Part shown: piece by piece, positions 8,226 through 63,349 of the stretch | Layout: each line of letters starts with the position of its first letter | How positions within the stretch are numbered: the stretch's first letter is position 1 | NCBI RefSeq assembly: GCF_036241575.1 | Contig: NZ_CP108455.1 | Coordinates: 7,175,001-7,239,000 of the forward strand | DNA length: 64,000 nt | Reading direction: 5' to 3' | Source: Streptomyces sp. NBC_01267 | GTDB lineage: Bacteria; Actinomycetota; Actinomycetes; Streptomycetales; Streptomycetaceae | Translations under genes and position numbers: made by a program | The notes under the pieces: generated by a model | The model's database searches: none | Seen by the model: only the letters and a program-made list of their open reading frames with translations | What the model was told of the DNA's origin: nothing

Positions 8226-9143
8226 GTGACCCGACCCCACTCGCCCCAGGAATCGACGGACGCGGCCGAGGGCGTCGCACCCGCCAGGCCGCAGTCGCTG
8301 ATGATGAGCTTCTTCGGCATCCATGTGCTCGGCCGCGACATCGCGCTCTCCTCGGCGTGCGTCATCGACGCGTTCGCCCGGGTACGGGTGGGCGAGGACG
8401 CCGTCCGCTCGACACTGACGCGCATGGTCGGCCGCGGCCTGCTGGAGCGGCACCGGCGAGGACGCCGCATGTACTTCTCGCTCACGGAGCGCGCGGCCAC
8501 CGTCCTGTCCGACGGGCAGGAGCGCATCTGGCGTGACGGAGCCGTCAACCGGGAGTGGGACGGCACGTGGACCCTGGTCGGTTTCTCGTTGCCGGAGTCC
8601 AGGCGCCGTGAACGGCACGACCTGCGCTCACGCCTGGTGTGGGCCGGATTCGGGCCGGTGCAGAGCGGCCTGTGGGTCGCTCCGCGCCGGGTCGACGTCG
8701 CCCCGCTGGCGGCGGAACTCGGGCTGGCGGGGCACATCAGGGCCTTCCACGGCGAGGCCGCGCCGCCTACCGAGGCCGGGTCGCTGCTGCACGCCGCCTT
8801 CGACGTGGACGCCATCGCCGCCGGCTACCGGTCCTTCGTCGAACGCTGGGACGGCCCCGTTCCGCCGGGCGGCGCGGCGGACGACATGGCGCGTCAGCTC
8901 CTGCTGCACACCGACTGGCTGGAACTGGTGCGCGACGCCCCGTATCTGCCCGCGGAACATCTGCCCGAGGGCTGGCCGGCCGCGCGCGCCGAGGAACTCT
9001 TCCGCGAGCTGGCACGGCGGTACGAGCCCGGTGCGTCGCGGCTGGCGGACGAGATGCTGGAGCGGATCGACCTGGTCGGCGAATCCGCGGCCGGCGAGGC
9101 CGGGACGGAGGAAGCGGCAACCGGCGGGTCCGGCAGCGACTGA
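8226..9143 (+). CDS. PaaX-family transcriptional regulator
   Basis: A 305-residue PaaX-type repressor. The N-terminal winged helix (about residues 20-85) contains SLMMSFFGIHVLGRDI and VRSTLTRMVGRGLLERHRRG, followed by the central WDGTWTLVGFSLPESRR segment and the typical C-terminal domain with ARQLLLHTDWLELVRDAPYLP. In known systems PaaX responds to an aryl-CoA such as phenylacetyl-CoA. Here the divergent operon encodes an acyl-CoA ligase, so the inducer may be that ligase's product. GTG 8226 has no ribosome site; TACGCT at 8214-8219 lies seven bases upstream, so the transcript may be leaderless. Confidence 0.9.
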   Translation: MTRPHSPQESTDAAEGVAPARPQSLMMSFFGIHVLGRDIALSSACVIDAFARVRVGEDAVRSTLTRMVGRGLLERHRRGRRMYFSLTERAATVLSDGQERIWRDGAVNREWDGTWTLVGFSLPESRRRERHDLRSRLVWAGFGPVQSGLWVAPRRVDVAPLAAELGLAGHIRAFHGEAAPPTEAGSLLHAAFDVDAIAAGYRSFVERWDGPVPPGGAADDMARQLLLHTDWLELVRDAPYLPAEHLPEGWPAARAEELFRELARRYEPGASRLADEMLERIDLVGESAAGEAGTEEAATGGSGSD

Positions 9144-57211: not shown

Positions 57212-57285
<74 letters not shown>

Positions 57286-57304
57286 CTTGAGAGAGTCGAG
57301 GTCA

Positions 57305-57336: not shown

Positions 57337-57859
57337 TTGACTATTTCTGGAGATCCGTTGGGGGACAGGCGTTCCTTGACCGGTGCCTGCGGGCGAGAGC
57401 GTGCGGGCACGGCGGGGCGCGCAGCATGCCGAGGGGTGCGATCCGAACGACGGACCAGGCGACGGTGAGGGCAGGGCAGTCTCGGCGGGGGCGAGTTGAC
57501 GGTAGTAGTGGCCCCTCGGCCACAGAGGCTGGACTCGGTCGGCGACGGAGGTATCGGTGAGGCTGTGGTTGACCAGGACGACAGCCCGGTCGCCGGTCAG
57601 CTCTCGCAGCCCGGTGGAGATGCGGTGCTTGGCCTTGGCGTCGAGCGTTGCCCATAGCCGTCAAGTGCTGGTCCGAGTTGGACGACATGGTTGTCTCCAG
57701 GCACGTAAGGCGTGTTCTCGGTCTGGGTGTGTGCGGTCGCTGGTTCTACAGGGAGTGTGTTGGCGTGGTGAAGGGCTGGGCCACGGTTCCCAAGTCCTTG
57801 TAGGCCAGACCGGATTTGGTCAGAATCGTCCTGGAACTTCTTCTAGCCAGGGGGACGGG
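57337..57859. other. Gene-poor region with gene debris
   Basis: 523 bp between the tRNA terminator and the pseudokinase gene. Apart from the ABC ATPase fragment (57533-57654) I see no coding sequence; codon third positions lack the strong GC bias of the real genes. AGGGGG at 57849-57854 is the ribosome site of the next gene. Confidence 0.5.
57533..57654 (-). pseudogene. Fragment of an ABC exporter ATPase gene
   Basis: Translated on the minus strand from 57654, about 40 codons read as the C-terminal part of an ABC exporter ATPase: TLDAKAKHRISTGLRELTGD (D-loop region) and AVVLVNHSLTDTSVADRV, where the H-loop is NHSL instead of THRL. Walker A, the signature motif and the rest of the protein are absent, and the frame then runs into unrelated sequence. 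It is a decayed remnant. It lies 250 bp past tRNA-Pro, so the region may have been an insertion point. The fragment assignment is by eye. Confidence 0.55.
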
Positions 57860-59104
57860 ATGAGGTATTCGGCAGACAGTGATCCGGTAGGAGGCGGGTC
57901 GGGGCAGGTTGGGGCGTGGTCCGGAGGAGAGCTTGCGCGGAAGGATGCCGGCGGTCCCGGGCCCGCGCCCTCGCTCGCCGAGGTCGTCGGGGCTGCCGGC
58001 GGGCTGCCGGAGGATGCGGTGCTGTGGATCGCGGCGGGGCTGGCCGGGGCGCTGGCCGTGCTGCACCGGGCCGGGCGGGCGCACGGCGACGTGCGGGCCG
58101 GGAACGTACTGCTGACGCGGGGCGGACCTCGGCTGACCGGTGACGCGCCGGGGCGGGGCGGCAGGGCCTCCGTGCCCGCGGCTGACATGGTCGCGCTGGG
58201 GATGCTGCTGGTCGCCGCGTACACGGGCGTCAGCAACCGACGGCCCGACCTCGACAATCTGCCGGTGCGGCTGCGGCAGGTCGTCGCCGTATGCTTGGCC
58301 GAGGATCCGGAGGAGCGGGCGACTCCCGCCCAACTGTTGGCCGTGGTCATGGAGTTGGAGCCAGAGGCGCCCGTCTGGACGGTCGAGGTCGACGACCTGA
58401 TCACCCCCACCGGCGGCCCCGTAGACACCACCCCGCCCTCGGACACCCCGGTCGAGGCGCCGCCGCGCCCGGAGCCGCACGGCCTGTCCGGGGCCCGGCT
58501 CGCCCTTGTGGTTGTGGCCGCAGTCCTCGTCGGCGTGGTCGTCACGGCGCTGCTGCTCCTGATGCCGGGCCGCGACGGTGGCACCCCCACCGCCGACGCC
58601 CCGGTGACGAGCCGGCCGACCCGGCTGCAGCCGACCGAGGACGACACACCGGGACAGCGGACGACCCCGCAGCAGGAGCCGAGCGAGGAGCAAACCCCCT
58701 CCGCGGATCCCGCCACCCAGCCTGCCGCGCCCGCCAGCAAGTCACCACCCGCCCCGACCCCCCAGCGGACCCGGCAGACCGGGACGATCGACGACTGCTC
58801 GGGCAAGCCCCTGACCGCGCCCGTCTCGCTCCTGCTGCTCTGCGGGGACGGCACGGCCATGCTGCACGACCTGATCTGGACCGACTGGGGCAGCGCCACG
58901 GCCACCGCGCAGGGCATCGTCTCGGAGGTGGTCTGCCAGCCGAGCTGTGCCGCCGGCCGGGAGGTCACCTCGGCCGCGACGGTCGCCGTCTCCGGCCTTG
59001 CCGACGGCCGCTACACCGTCATGGAGATCAGGGCCCCGCAGTCGCCCACCGACCCCGACGCCAACTACACGCTCGACCGGCTCGGCCCGACCTACCGGGG
59101 CTGA
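57860..59104 (+). CDS. Membrane-anchored serine/threonine pseudokinase
   Basis: A 414-residue protein with only the C-lobe of a protein kinase. The catalytic-loop remnant HGDVRAGNVLL is at residues 75-85, followed by helices up to about 165 (MVALGMLLVAAYTG, LRQVVAVCLAEDPEERATPAQLL). There is no glycine loop or VAIK lysine, because only about 74 residues precede the loop, and no DFG motif follows. A membrane helix spans about residues 213-235, then a Pro/Thr/Ser/Gln-rich linker and an external domain of about 105 residues with four cysteines (DDCSGKPL, LLCGDGTA, VVCQPSCAAG). It is convergent with the CHAT gene, six bp apart. It probably works as a sensor or scaffold. Confidence 0.75.
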   Translation: MRYSADSDPVGGGSGQVGAWSGGELARKDAGGPGPAPSLAEVVGAAGGLPEDAVLWIAAGLAGALAVLHRAGRAHGDVRAGNVLLTRGGPRLTGDAPGRGGRASVPAADMVALGMLLVAAYTGVSNRRPDLDNLPVRLRQVVAVCLAEDPEERATPAQLLAVVMELEPEAPVWTVEVDDLITPTGGPVDTTPPSDTPVEAPPRPEPHGLSGARLALVVVAAVLVGVVVTALLLLMPGRDGGTPTADAPVTSRPTRLQPTEDDTPGQRTTPQQEPSEEQTPSADPATQPAAPASKSPPAPTPQRTRQTGTIDDCSGKPLTAPVSLLLLCGDGTAMLHDLIWTDWGSATATAQGIVSEVVCQPSCAAGREVTSAATVAVSGLADGRYTVMEIRAPQSPTDPDANYTLDRLGPTYRG

Positions 59105-59110
59105 TCCCGC

Positions 59111-62100
59111 TCACACCCCCCACGCGGTGAACGCCGCCCAGTGCACGGGGGAGGCGAAGGGGCGTTCGTCGGCGTGATGCTCGGGCCGGGCGTACCGTCC
59201 GGCCAGGGCCGCGAGGTGGGGGTGGGCGTCGGTGTACCGTGCGAGGCCGGACCAGGTCAGCCGCCGCAGCCAGGTCCGCGCCGCGCGCAGCGCGGACACT
59301 GGAGGCTCACCGTGCGCACCGCCGACGGGGGCGAGCAGCTCGTACAGGCGGGTCATCAGCAGCGCCGTCGCCAGGTCGTTCACCTGCCACAGACTGGTGA
59401 TCACACAGGCGGCACCGGCCTGGAGGAAGCCGCCCGGCAGCCCGACGAACTCGTCGGGCGCGTCGATGACCTCGTACCGCCCGGACTGACAGGCCCCCGC
59501 CACCACCAGTCGGCAGTACGGGAGTTGGTGCCGTGCGAGTACGCCCAGATCCAGAGTGCCGTCCGCGAGCGCCAACGTGCCGCCCTGCCCGATGAGTTCC
59601 GCGCTCCCGTGGCAGCACAGATGCAGATATGATGCCTCCGCCAGGTGCCCGAGCAACCACTCGACCGTGGCATCGTCCCCCACGGCGGACACGGCCTCCC
59701 CGCCTGCCTCGAACAGCCCCCGGATCTCCGCCAGTTCACTGCGCGCGCCCGGCAGTGAGCCGTCGGGATCCGAGACGGCGACCAGCCGCGGCACGGGCGA
59801 CGGCGGCCGACCGGCGGCGACCCGGGAGGCGGCGTACGCCCCGGCCGACGGAGCGAGAGCTGACGTCCCCAGATCATCGAGCAATTCACCACCCTCGCCC
59901 ACCGGCACGGCGTGCAACGGCACCTGCCCCAGCAATCCGGTCGGTACGACCACCACCTCGTGCCGCGGATCCTCCGCCAGCAGCCCGGCGAGGGGCCGCA
60001 GCAACGGGGCGAGTCCCCGTAACCGGTCCACCGCACCCGGAAGTTCACGTCGCCGCTTGAGCGCACCGGCCTGCTGGACCAGGAACAGCCCCGCCTCCGG
60101 GGCTTCCAGGTCCAGCGCCAGGAGCCGGACGATCGAGGAGCTGGTCACCTCGGGGACGAACACGGCGCGCACCCCGGTCCGTGCGTCCCGCGGTACCACG
60201 AGGACACAGCTGCCCCAGACCGAGTTCACCAGATAGGCGAGCGGCATCCCGGCCGCCGCCCGGACGACATCCGCTACCTCGGTCGTCCGCAGAAACCCCT
60301 CGAAGCCGGGGATCGCCTGGATCTCCTCGACCACGGTGCGCACACCGCGCTCGGCTGCAGCCTGCGCGCCCATAGAGGCGACGAAGCCTCCGGCCGAGGG
60401 GACGAATCCACCGTCCGAGGTGACGAACCCCCTGGTCGGCTCAGCGTCCGCCCCCTCGACCCCGGCGACCACCACCCGGTACCGCTCCCGTGCCTCCCGG
60501 TACCGGCGGGCCAGCAGCGGATCGACACCCTCCAGCGCAGCCAGATCCACCGTGTCCCGCCCGGCCACCGCCGACAACTCGCGGGCGAGCCCCCGCTCGA
60601 TCGCCTCCACCGCACGCTCCGGGCGCCCCGCGCGGGCCAGCAGGAACGCGGCCTGGCGGGCGGTTCCGCGCGTCAGCAGGAGCACCCCCCGGCGGCCGAC
60701 GGCGGTGATCTGGGCGTCGTAGAGCGCGTGGACGGCGGTCAGCATGCCCGACGCCACATCGGCCGCGTCGCCCCAGTCTTCGGCCGCGGCGAGCGCGTCG
60801 ACGGCCTCCCGGGCGATGGACAGATGCAGGAATGGAAAGACACGCGGCGGTACGGAGGCCAGCGCCGTGCGCCGCAGCCGTAGGCCCTCGGCGCTCCCCG
60901 GACCGTCGAGCAGATCGGCCGTCCGGGCCAGGAGCCAGGTGGCGCGGCTGATGTCGAGGAGCCCTGGGTGCGCGGTGTCGAAGGCGACGACGGCGGTCGC
61001 CGCGGCTTGGGCGCCGCGTGGGTCGGCGGCATCGCGCGCGAGTGCGAGCAGCAGGTCGGCCAGGTTGCACTGGAGCTGCGACCACAGCACGGGGTCGTCC
61101 TCCGGGCGCAGTTGGCCGAGGGCGTCCCGGTAACACCGCTCGGCCTGTTCCAGGTCGCCCGGTTCGCCGCGCCGGAACAGGAGCAGCCCGAGGTTGATCA
61201 GGGAGTAGGCCCAGTCGACGCGGTTGCGTTCGGGGGAGCGTTCGCCCAGGCCGGCCTGGATATGTTCGATACCAACGGTCAGATCGGCGGGACCGCCGCC
61301 CGGACGCTGGCCGAGCACCAGCCCGTAGTTGGTCTGCACCCGGGCCCAGAACTCGCCGTGGGCGCGGCGGTCCACCGCGGCGGTGGCGCGGGCGAGCAGA
61401 TCGCGGGCGGACTCCCAATGTTCGATGCGGTCGCCGTCGTCACGGAAGTACTGGGCGGCGGCGAGATTGGCGACCACCTCGGCCCATTGGAGGGTGCCCT
61501 CCGGAAGCCGGGCGAGGGAGAGCTGAAGCACGCGCACCACTTCGGCTGGGTCGGCAGGATGGGCCGTATGCAGGGAAGACACCAACAACCCACCCAGCCG
61601 TGCTGCGAGTTCGCCCTCGACTTCCATCTCGCCCGTCTGCCCGGCGAGTTCGAGTGCTTCGCGCGCGAGAGGAATGATCTCCGGGCTATCCGTGCCCCGA
61701 ACCTGGTCGCAAATCTCGTACAGCCGGGCCCGCAGCCCCTGCCCGAAGGCTGCCATCGCCGCTGCGTAGCGCTCGATCGCCGCGCCCACGGGCGTACGGC
61801 CCCCGCACAGATCCTCCAGCAACCCCTGCCGCAGCCGCAGCGGAGTCTCCAGCGGAGTGCCGACGGCCTCGCGCAGCTCCCCCGCCCCGGCGTCGCGCAC
61901 CAGGGTGTCCGCGGTGAGCCGTGGATGCGTCCGGACCAGATCGGCGAGCTGGTCCGGCATGGTCACGGTGACGGCGTACAGCAGCTCCCGGACACCGGAT
62001 CCGGCCAACTCCGCCGCCGCGTTGACCAGGAAGATCCGGTAGTTGTCCACCGTCGGCGCCCCGTACGGTGCCAACTCCGCGCACGCCGCATCGGGGTCCG

Positions 62101-62515
62101 CCAGATCCCGTTCCGTGTCCCGACTCAGCACGAACGGCAGCAGCCTGCGCGGCAACACGACCACGTTCCCGCCGAACCGGCCACTGGCGAAGGCCCCGGC
62201 GAGCCGCGCCTCCTCCACCAGCGAGGCCGCGCTCGCGGTGGCATCGTGCTGGAGCTCCGCGACGGAGGTGGCGAACAACGACGGTGCGAGCGCCCCGGCC
62301 CGCAGCACCAGCATCGGCGCCTCGACATGTGCCCGGGTTCCGCAGTCGGGGCAGCCCGCCCAGTGCAGACCGGGCCCGAACCCGTCCGGCCCATCGCGAC
62401 TTTCGAGGACATCGGCACGCTCACGGCTGTCGACGATGCGCCATACCGGCGCCTGACACTGTCGACCGCACTGCTCACAACACCAGTCGTGCGGCGCTCT
62501 CGTGGAGACCGTCAC
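59111..62515 (-). CDS. Zinc-ribbon, helical-repeat, CHAT-domain caspase-like protease
   Basis: A 1134-residue cytoplasmic protein. Residues 12-62 form a CxxC zinc ribbon (WCCEQCGRQC, then GCPDCGTRAHV). Residues 90-700 are helical, with TPR-like repeats in the middle (AYSLINLGLLLFRRGEPGDL, WSQLQCNLADLLLALARD). The C-terminal CHAT peptidase has catalytic His969 in YLHLCCHGSAEL and Cys1009 in LVVAGACQSGR, 40 residues apart, followed by ITSLWQVNDLATALLM. The dyad is intact, so it should be an active protease. GTG 62515 is eight bases past the stop of the small upstream gene, implying an operon. Leu832 is a TTA codon (60022-60020). TPR-CHAT proteins elsewhere act in immunity and cell death; that role here is inferred. 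Confidence 0.88.
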   Translation of the reverse strand: MTVSTRAPHDWCCEQCGRQCQAPVWRIVDSRERADVLESRDGPDGFGPGLHWAGCPDCGTRAHVEAPMLVLRAGALAPSLFATSVAELQHDATASAASLVEEARLAGAFASGRFGGNVVVLPRRLLPFVLSRDTERDLADPDAACAELAPYGAPTVDNYRIFLVNAAAELAGSGVRELLYAVTVTMPDQLADLVRTHPRLTADTLVRDAGAGELREAVGTPLETPLRLRQGLLEDLCGGRTPVGAAIERYAAAMAAFGQGLRARLYEICDQVRGTDSPEIIPLAREALELAGQTGEMEVEGELAARLGGLLVSSLHTAHPADPAEVVRVLQLSLARLPEGTLQWAEVVANLAAAQYFRDDGDRIEHWESARDLLARATAAVDRRAHGEFWARVQTNYGLVLGQRPGGGPADLTVGIEHIQAGLGERSPERNRVDWAYSLINLGLLLFRRGEPGDLEQAERCYRDALGQLRPEDDPVLWSQLQCNLADLLLALARDAADPRGAQAAATAVVAFDTAHPGLLDISRATWLLARTADLLDGPGSAEGLRLRRTALASVPPRVFPFLHLSIAREAVDALAAAEDWGDAADVASGMLTAVHALYDAQITAVGRRGVLLLTRGTARQAAFLLARAGRPERAVEAIERGLARELSAVAGRDTVDLAALEGVDPLLARRYREARERYRVVVAGVEGADAEPTRGFVTSDGGFVPSAGGFVASMGAQAAAERGVRTVVEEIQAIPGFEGFLRTTEVADVVRAAAGMPLAYLVNSVWGSCVLVVPRDARTGVRAVFVPEVTSSSIVRLLALDLEAPEAGLFLVQQAGALKRRRELPGAVDRLRGLAPLLRPLAGLLAEDPRHEVVVVPTGLLGQVPLHAVPVGEGGELLDDLGTSALAPSAGAYAASRVAAGRPPSPVPRLVAVSDPDGSLPGARSELAEIRGLFEAGGEAVSAVGDDATVEWLLGHLAEASYLHLCCHGSAELIGQGGTLALADGTLDLGVLARHQLPYCRLVVAGACQSGRYEVIDAPDEFVGLPGGFLQAGAACVITSLWQVNDLATALLMTRLYELLAPVGGAHGEPPVSALRAARTWLRRLTWSGLARYTDAHPHLAALAGRYARPEHHADERPFASPVHWAAFTAWGV

Positions 62516-62523
62516 CGCCGGAC

Positions 62524-62988
62524 CTACTTGCCGTCGGTGAGATGGGAGAGCAAAGCCGTCAGCACCCTCGTGAGAGCTGCATCCTTGAGGGCCCGCTTGT
62601 GCACGGTCACACTCCACCGCCCCCGGGCGTCCCGCTTGATCACGACCTCGGTCTGCAACAACGTGACAGCCAGCATCCCTACGGACACGGACACCGGGTC
62701 GAACCGCTCCATCGGCGACCGCACGTACTCCACGGCCTCACCGACGACGCCGTCTCCGCTCAGGGCGACATACTCCAATGCCGCCCGCGCGACGTCTCCT
62801 TCTCCTTCACTGCTGCCCGGCTCGATCCCTGCGGCCTTGAGCGCGTCACTCAACTCCTCGTCGGGCAAGGCAATGTCCATGGCGGAAGGCAGCAATCCCT
62901 TGTCTTCCACCAGCACCGTCAACGCCCGTACGGCCTCCACATCGGAGAGCGCACGAATCTCGCCCACCTGCTCATCTCTTTGCGACAT
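62524..62988 (-). CDS. Small acidic protein encoded with the CHAT protease
   Basis: A 154-residue protein with no family I recognise. It is acidic at the N-terminus and mostly helical: ALSDVEAVRALTVLVEDKG, then LPDEELSDALKAAGIEPG. A C-terminal strand-rich part follows (SVGMLAVTLLQTEVVIKRD, then WSVTVHKRALKDAALTRVL), ending with a helix. The N-terminal helical part resembles a small death-like or effector-associated adaptor in composition only. It is the first gene of the pair and its stop lies eight bases before the CHAT start, so it may be substrate, inhibitor or adaptor of the protease. ATG 62988 has GGAGAGG about 12 bases ahead. Confidence 0.72.
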   Translation of the reverse strand: MSQRDEQVGEIRALSDVEAVRALTVLVEDKGLLPSAMDIALPDEELSDALKAAGIEPGSSEGEGDVARAALEYVALSGDGVVGEAVEYVRSPMERFDPVSVSVGMLAVTLLQTEVVIKRDARGRWSVTVHKRALKDAALTRVLTALLSHLTDGK

Positions 62989-63349
62989 GAGCCAAGTCTG
63001 CCTCTCCGCGGGGCGTGCGGGGCCGGCTTACGGGTGATTCGTCGCCATGGGTGCTGCGTCTGTCCGCCGCCGGCGAGGAGTTCGGTCGGAATTCCGGCCC
63101 GCACTCCTTCCTGGAGGAGTGCGGGACCTCGTGTCTGATGGCGATCCCGAAGAACACCGAACTGATCGATTCCACCAAACACCCAGGAAGACAGCGAAGT
63201 TGACGGCACGCCTGCCGGAACGCGGCCTTCACCCGCCGGGCCTGCGGAATCGGCGCCAGGGGCTTCCTCGCCTACGACTGGGCCGTGATCGAAACCCCCG
63301 ACGACCGTCGCCCTTGCTGCCGAATACACCACCAGTGCCGCGATCACCC
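62989..63349. other. Unassigned stretch with a possible decayed or small gene
   Basis: 361 bp between the small acidic gene and the Nudix gene. On the minus strand an open frame begins at ATG 63368 with a hydrophobic start (MGLGKLGVIAALVVYSAARA) that looks like a signal anchor, and runs to 62919. The last 70 bp overlap the next gene, and codon quality falls after about 63240. A second minus-strand frame (63232-62972) is cysteine-rich. A frameshifted or decayed gene is possible. I recognise no family. Confidence 0.3.

What the first reader, a model, noticed from the sequence alone, without database searches (positions are those of the whole stretch)
59111..62988. CHAT protease with zinc ribbon and a small unknown partner: candidate conflict system
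An intact His969/Cys1009 caspase-like dyad is fused to TPR-like repeats and an N-terminal zinc ribbon, and a 154-residue protein of no recognised family lies eight bases upstream in the same operon. A pseudokinase gene converges on it with a six-bp gap, and a Nudix gene is nearby. CHAT-TPR proteins elsewhere are switch-activated proteases in phage defence. The combination looks like a stand-alone two-gene system that could be undescribed.
Basis: partly seen in the sequence, partly recalled or inferred. Interest (0 to 1): 0.72.

Follow-up and report, generated by a model that had tools for sequence, protein, structure and literature searches.

The report
Mobile three-gene caspase-like protease module
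A rare, mobile set of three Streptomyces genes pairs a caspase-like (CHAT) protease with a small partner protein and a damaged membrane kinase; it looks like an undescribed, switchable self-protection system, but no function has been shown.

Summary
In detail: a 1134-aa CHAT protease (H969/C1009, four-cysteine ribbon) follows a 154-aa orphan gene by 8 bp. "Two-gene system" is too small. The unit is a ~5.4-kb cassette (57757-63163): small gene, CHAT gene and a convergent membrane pseudokinase gene. Eleven loci carry it in nine genomic contexts, one a 1.56-Mb linear plasmid. It is rare: full-length CHAT gene in 2 of 150 Streptomyces genomes, decayed in a third. The small gene precedes the CHAT gene in 12 of 12 loci. 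In another actinobacterial family, homologues of the small protein (31-34% identity) lie beside a CHAT-NTPase gene, or its remnants, in 7 of 8 loci; that protein does not align with this one by BLASTP. In two of these an AbiE pair lies nearby. The small protein therefore recurs as a CHAT partner across architectures. Best model: a securin-like regulator or substrate of a CHAT protease, in a defence or cell-suicide module with a membrane sensor. The module is well supported; the function is inferred. The small protein matched no known family and failed the EACC1 tests.

The parts
62524..62988 (-). Small gene, 154 aa; conserved CHAT-partner family of unknown fold
   Evidence: Upstream of the CHAT gene in 12 of 12 loci; dN/dS 0.13-0.38; homologues in a second actinobacterial family
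59111..62515 (-). CHAT protease gene, 1134 aa: N-terminal four-Cys zinc ribbon, helical TPR-like middle, variable Gly-rich linker, C-terminal CHAT domain
   Evidence: PF12770 E 5.2e-41; dyad and cysteines invariant in 10 of 10
57860..59104 (+). Convergent membrane pseudokinase gene, 414 aa: kinase C-lobe remnant, one TM helix (residues about 216-234), C-terminal domain probably outside the cell
   Evidence: Pkinase E 3.9e-4, under cut-off; hydropathy 3.19 over 19 residues and alignment of 7 orthologues; orthologue in 2 of 91 genomes, both with the CHAT gene
57757..63163 (.). Mobile cassette: block shared with loci in other genomic contexts; extends to 63302 in the plasmid copy
   Evidence: Blastn edges; flanks not shared except two pairs of loci
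62989..63055 (-). Likely promoter stretch: CAGACT seven bases before the ATG, imperfect dyad further up; probably a leaderless start (inference)
   Evidence: Aligned in 11 loci; CAGACT-N7-ATG in 8 of 11, exact GGTGAC-N2-GTCACC dyad in 3 of 11, not in the window
63056..63302 (.). Weak transposase remnant at the cassette edge
   Evidence: Shared by window, L012 and L066; Pfam DDE_5 and DDE_Tnp_1 on the L066 copy, both under cut-off
57212..57286 (+). tRNA-Pro (GGG), 470 bp from the cassette edge
   Evidence: ARAGORN; synteny break behind it in relatives

Best explanation
A mobile three-gene module centred on a caspase-like CHAT protease that is held off until triggered. Shown: three conserved genes that travel as one cassette; intact dyad and zinc ribbon; constant pairing of small gene and zinc-ribbon CHAT gene; the small family recurs beside a CHAT-NTPase protein of other architecture. 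Inferred: the small cytosolic protein binds the CHAT protein and regulates it, most likely as a securin-like inhibitor and/or first substrate; the zinc ribbon and helical middle sense or recruit the trigger; activated protease cuts the small protein or other host proteins and stops growth or kills the cell, which blocks a phage or mobile element; the membrane (pseudo)kinase reports or tunes the trigger at the membrane.
For: Homology block with sharp ends and nine genomic contexts among 11 loci, one on a plasmid. Small gene with the CHAT gene in 12 of 12 loci. Dyad and cysteines invariant in 10 of 10. Purifying selection on all three genes. Small homologues beside a CHAT-NTPase gene or remnants in 7 of 8 loci of a second family, with AbiEi/AbiEii between in 2 of 8. 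Rare and decayed in several loci. Pseudokinase orthologue only in the 2 of 91 genomes that carry the CHAT gene.
Against: No functional data. In the window genome the neighbours are sugar, YcaO and P450 genes; PADLOC gives only generic kinase models (PD-T4-6, mad6) for the pseudokinase and a weak PDC-S07 for the Nudix gene, and BovA at E 0.055 for the CHAT protein. Distant CHAT proteins do without the small gene. L014 does not show the kinase-like gene at the expected place. L063 has a small-gene remnant with no CHAT-NTPase gene found. No complex could be predicted.
Confidence: 0.45

Rival explanations
1. The small protein is the effector precursor: the CHAT protease cuts it to release an active fragment, as Craspase's TPR-CHAT cuts Csx30, rather than being inhibited by it.
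For: Same operon and constant pairing; cleavage of a partner by a TPR-CHAT protease is known (PMC9729208, passages). Two-part build: conserved N-terminal stretch, variable linker, conserved C-terminal 60 residues.
Against: No toxin or effector family matched. In L065 the small gene stays open where the CHAT-NTPase gene has collapsed, which fits an inhibitor at least as well.
Confidence: 0.25
2. A developmental or stress signalling cassette of Streptomyces: membrane kinase-like sensor, adaptor and protease act in regulated proteolysis, not in defence.
For: Membrane kinase-like gene with a probable extracytoplasmic domain; no defence island around it in the window genome.
Against: Rarity, mobility and repeated decay; AbiE next to two relatives.
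Confidence: 0.15
3. A selfish addiction module: the CHAT protease is the toxin and the small protein the antitoxin that stabilises the plasmid or island carrying it.
For: Two-gene operon with the small gene first, a plasmid copy, transposase remnants at the edge.
Against: The CHAT protein is very large for a toxin-antitoxin toxin (recalled, no call); the third gene with a membrane segment has no place in it.
Confidence: 0.12
4. The pseudokinase is a passenger: a degenerating neighbour kept only because the cassette moves as one piece.
For: Looser constraint, dN/dS 0.29-0.57 in six comparisons; not shown in L014; absent from the second family's loci by the gene calls made there.
Against: Open in 7 of 7 full-length orthologues with TM helix and C-terminal domain kept; dN/dS below 1; constant convergent place.
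Confidence: 0.3

Closest known systems
EACC1-caspase two-gene systems (Kaur et al. 2020, PMC7159879; passages seen)
   Same: Small 5' gene followed by a gene for a caspase-superfamily protease; actinobacterial; thought to be a sensor with an autoproteolytic switch.
   Different: Small protein is not EACC1 by the tests run; no long TM helix in it; caspase domain is C-terminal here, N-terminal there; zinc ribbon and convergent pseudokinase are extra.
Craspase TPR-CHAT, Csx29 (PMC9729208, passages seen; NCBIfam NF041237)
   Same: CHAT protease with His-Cys dyad behind a helical region; partner-controlled.
   Different: NCBIfam match only 16.4 bits against a cut-off of 300; no CRISPR-like partner recognised among the cassette's genes.
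Separase-securin (PMC9729208, passages seen)
   Same: Proposed logic: large caspase-like protease held by a small inhibitor.
   Different: Analogy only; no sequence link of the small protein to anything.
CHAT-NTPase genes with the small homologue in a second actinobacterial family (L049, L050, L051, L064)
   Same: Same small partner family (31-34% identity); CHAT dyad motifs in 4 of 4.
   Different: CHAT N-terminal, followed by an AAA_16/STAND-like region (under Pfam cut-off); no alignment to the window's CHAT protein better than E 0.89; small gene downstream, no kinase-like gene called.

Membership tests
CHAT protease family (PF12770) | CHAT domain over Pfam's cut-off with His-Cys dyad | tested here: met
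   141.4 bits against 24; H969/C1009 invariant in 10 of 10
CHAT protease family (PF12770) | Protease activity | not testable with these tools
   Needs an assay of wild type and C1009A
EACC1-caspase system | Small 5' gene encodes an EACC1 domain (PF19953) | tested here: not met
   No EACC1 match in 15 of 15 members at E <= 1; no EACC1 in the window's genome; hhalign probability 0.76% and 0.15-0.19%, score 9.5 against a shuffled mean of 12.4 over 40 shuffles, one outlier at 130
EACC1-caspase system | Conserved TM helix in the small protein | tested here: not met
   Best 19-residue hydropathy 1.81 in the window protein, against 3.19 for the kinase-like protein
EACC1-caspase system | 3' gene with a caspase-superfamily protease | tested here: met
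   CHAT domain; position in the protein differs
Type III-E Craspase (Csx29) | Csx29 family score and gRAMP partner | tested here: not met
   16.4 bits against 300; the other two genes of the cassette do not match a Cas family
Known anti-phage systems in PADLOC-DB 2.0.0 | Significant model match of small or CHAT protein | tested here: not met
   None for the small protein at E <= 1; BovA at E 0.055 for the CHAT protein
Serine/threonine kinase (third gene) | ATP-binding N-lobe, HRD and DFG | tested here: not met
   Window clade has only HGDVRAGN and no N-lobe or DFG in 7 orthologues; the L017 version reads VALK, HRDLKPSN and DFG in a draft contig with frameshifts
Toxin-antitoxin pair | Large protein toxic alone, small protein neutralises | not testable with these tools
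   Needs expression with and without the small gene

The most novel reading that the evidence does not exclude
A family of small proteins acts as a portable, securin-like regulator of CHAT proteases: one partner family has been paired with CHAT proteins of two unrelated architectures (zinc-ribbon/TPR-like and NTPase), and in Streptomyces it was further wired to a membrane kinase that in most copies lost its kinase parts, giving a membrane-to-caspase-like death switch not described before.
Probability: 0.3. Interest if true: 0.78.

Novelty: new variant of a known kind. Interest (0 to 1): 0.56.

Why it matters
CHAT proteases recur in bacterial conflict systems, but how they are held off is known for few; Craspase is the case whose passages I saw. 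A small partner family that recurs beside CHAT proteins of different design is a candidate general inhibitor or adaptor, and can be tested with two genes. The series from a kinase with its motifs (L017) to a C-lobe pseudokinase in the window clade would also let one ask what a kinase fold does once catalysis is lost. In the listings of seven literature searches I saw no paper describing this module; the library holds open-licence papers only and I saw listings, not most texts.

Tried and rejected
EACC1 membership: suggested by gene order and by a helix-hairpin-helix look; not supported. For the EACC1 alignment I used 15 of the 18 matches (L035, L037, L038 left out as partial or stop-bearing). 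DUF7825: 5 of 15 small proteins at E <= 1, best 0.02; not pursued. Nudix gene as part of the unit: rejected, outside the shared block. An attL/attR pair for the cassette: not found; the second exact copy of the tRNA-Pro 3' end in the genome is a full tRNA gene on the other side. L012 has a 43-bp copy of the tRNA-Pro 3' end 6 kb from its cassette and no tRNA gene; suggestive only. Phage records and viral contigs: no relative. Plasmids: one record with the pair; six others match the CHAT region only, under 60% identity; CHAT-NTPase protein: no plasmid match. Solved structures by sequence: none. Weak small-protein matches were not followed: 3 of 8 (E 2.6e-4 to 0.007) and 3 of 10 (E 0.004 to 0.007). 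One of ten loci (L020, a Saprospiraceae MAG, 29% over the CHAT region) was left out of the counts. The phylum search found only the window's own genome, 1 of 296.
Full report
What is there. On the minus strand a 154-aa gene (62988-62524) is followed after 8 bp by a 1134-aa gene (GTG 62515 to 59111); a plus-strand gene (57860-59104) ends 6 bp from it. The large protein has a CHAT domain at 838-1133 (E 5.2e-41), H969 and C1009, and a four-cysteine ribbon at residues 13-58, all invariant in 10 of 10 aligned proteins. The ribbon resembles CpXC weakly in 9 of 9 members (best E 1.6e-4). The middle is TPR-like at best. The small protein has no significant family in Pfam, NCBIfam or PADLOC.

The unit is three genes. 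Blastn of the window against ten Streptomyces loci with the cassette, and one decayed locus, shows a block with sharp ends: 57757 to 63163 in S. himastatinicus (L012) and to 63302 in the plasmid copy (L066). Identities among seven cassettes are 80.5-93.9%. With the cassette masked, only two pairs of 11 loci share flanking DNA at E <= 1e-20 (L013/L019, L016/L017), so the 11 loci lie in nine contexts as far as their contigs reach. One is a 1,564,239-base linear plasmid of Streptomyces sp. NBC_01483. The edge next to the small gene carries a transposase remnant shared by window, L012 and L066 (Pfam matches under cut-off).

Pairing. The small gene precedes the CHAT gene in 12 of 12 loci: the window, L011-L019, L066 and the decayed L041. 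The gap is 6-8 bp in most, 25, 85 and 91 bp in L015, L016 and L017. L017's CHAT gene is split over frames in a draft contig; L041 has a stop codon in the small gene and only a truncated CHAT gene. L013 and L019, and L016 and L017, share their place, so fewer than 12 are independent.

The third gene. Full-length pseudokinase orthologues are in the window, L011, L012, L013, L018, L019 and L066. L015 and L016 (contig ends) show its C-terminal part and L017 a version with kinase motifs, in two frames. L014 does not show it in the 98 bases available. That is 10 of 11 non-decayed loci; the decayed L041 has no match. In the window clade it lacks the N-lobe and DFG and keeps HGDVRAGN, one strong TM helix and the C-terminal domain; in L017 the same gene reads VALK, HRDLKPSN and DFG. 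L016 has a further kinase gene beside it (Pkinase E 7.3e-38). In 91 Streptomyces genomes the orthologue is found in the two that carry the zinc-ribbon CHAT gene; three others match only the kinase lobe at about E 1e-13. Its dN/dS is 0.29-0.57 in six comparisons, looser than the small gene (0.13-0.38) and the CHAT gene (0.29-0.38) in nine each.

Distribution. The CHAT gene is full-length in 2 of 150 Streptomyces genomes including the window's own; two more match at 33-40% identity over part. The small gene is in 3 of 150, one the decayed copy. The zinc-ribbon part is in 2 of 394 genomes of the class, both of the window's genus. The scan of named genomes gave nine Streptomyces loci and one distant CHAT match. 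Carriers: S. himastatinicus, S. griseofuscus, S. hygroscopicus, S. laculatispora, S. huasconensis and five strains without a species name, the plasmid host included. No relative was found in phage records or viral contigs.

Where it sits. The cassette begins 470 bp behind tRNA-Pro (57212-57286). In two of three relatives compared, alignment stops just behind this tRNA and resumes about 20 kb further right (extended window coordinate about 77,400, outside the window), with 5.4 and 6.3 kb of other DNA between. In the third, alignment does not resume in the stretch fetched. None of the three matches the cassette in its 19.5 kb. The genes to the right are glycosyltransferase, sugar-dehydrogenase, YcaO and P450 genes (9 proteins). 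PADLOC on 7 proteins gave generic kinase models (PD-T4-6, mad6, best E 5.6e-10, over the lobe) for the pseudokinase and a weak PDC-S07 (E 6.3e-5) for the Nudix gene, nothing for five others.

The second family. A profile of the small protein finds homologues (31-34% identity) in another actinobacterial family: 8 of 120 genomes. In 7 of these 8 loci a CHAT-NTPase gene or its remnants lie beside it; L063 has only a stop-bearing C-terminal piece and no such gene. These proteins carry CHAT at the N-terminus (Pfam CHAT in 2 of 3 scanned) and an AAA_16/STAND-like region (AAA_16 E 7.8e-6 to 2.2e-7, under cut-off in 3 of 3); dyad motifs stand in 4 of 4 inspected. BLASTP of the window's CHAT protein against one of them gives nothing better than E 0.89. 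In L049 and L050 an AbiEi/AbiEii pair (PADLOC best E 2.1e-71 to 4e-87) and a fragment of a second CHAT-NTPase gene lie between the CHAT-NTPase gene and the small gene. In L065 the small gene is open while the CHAT-NTPase gene has collapsed; in L061 and L062 remnants of both run together. These describe decay and do not prove an interaction.

How it probably works. The pairing of one small family with two CHAT proteins that do not align is the main clue: its job concerns the CHAT protease itself. TPR-CHAT resembles separase, which securin holds off, and Craspase is switched on allosterically and cuts Csx30 (PMC9729208, passages). By analogy I infer a small regulator that is inhibitor, substrate or both; a zinc ribbon and helical middle that detect the trigger; and a membrane (pseudo)kinase that adds a signal. 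CAGACT seven bases before the ATG in 8 of 11 loci suggests a leaderless start; an exact upstream dyad is in 3 of 11 only (inference). Defence against phage or mobile elements is the likeliest use, from rarity, mobility, decay and AbiE next to two relatives; there is no direct evidence.

Known systems. EACC1-caspase systems share the gene order (PMC7159879, passages), but the small protein fails the EACC1 tests; it may work like one without being one. Csx29 matches at 16.4 bits against a cut-off of 300. PADLOC has only BovA at E 0.055 for the CHAT protein. The term 'CHAT' does not occur in the main text of PMC7159879. PMC8195603 was seen in passages. A survey of actinobacterial antiviral genes has no caspase, protease or AbiE and 'chat' only in an author's name (PMC10482375, term search).

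Limits. Genomes of the second family are unnamed. The genome sample is 1,999 genome-searches with overlapping sets, not a census.

Noticed in passing
L012:20760-20802: A 43-bp exact copy of the tRNA-Pro 3' end with no tRNA gene around it, 6 kb from the cassette, with IS3-like and PIN genes between; looks like an integration scar.
   Followed up: partly
L049:11976-13535 and L050:7017-8576: AbiEi/AbiEii pair between a CHAT-NTPase gene and the small-gene homologue.
   Followed up: partly
L039:797-8364 and L040:5131-12948: Pairs of neighbouring large CHAT genes (tandem in L039, convergent in L040) without the small gene or zinc ribbon.
   Followed up: no
window 60360-60460: Gly-rich GGFV-like repeats in the linker before the CHAT part of the protein, very variable in length between homologues; a possible autocleavage stretch.
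   Followed up: no
L069:9537-14420 (right of the window): YcaO gene next to P450 and other genes, possibly a RiPP cluster.
   Followed up: no
L041:1004-1531 and 8636-8899: A macro-domain gene and a second partial macro domain near the decayed copy of the pair.
   Followed up: no
L016:13174-15426: An additional kinase gene between the CHAT gene and the membrane kinase-like gene (Pkinase E 7.3e-38).
   Followed up: no
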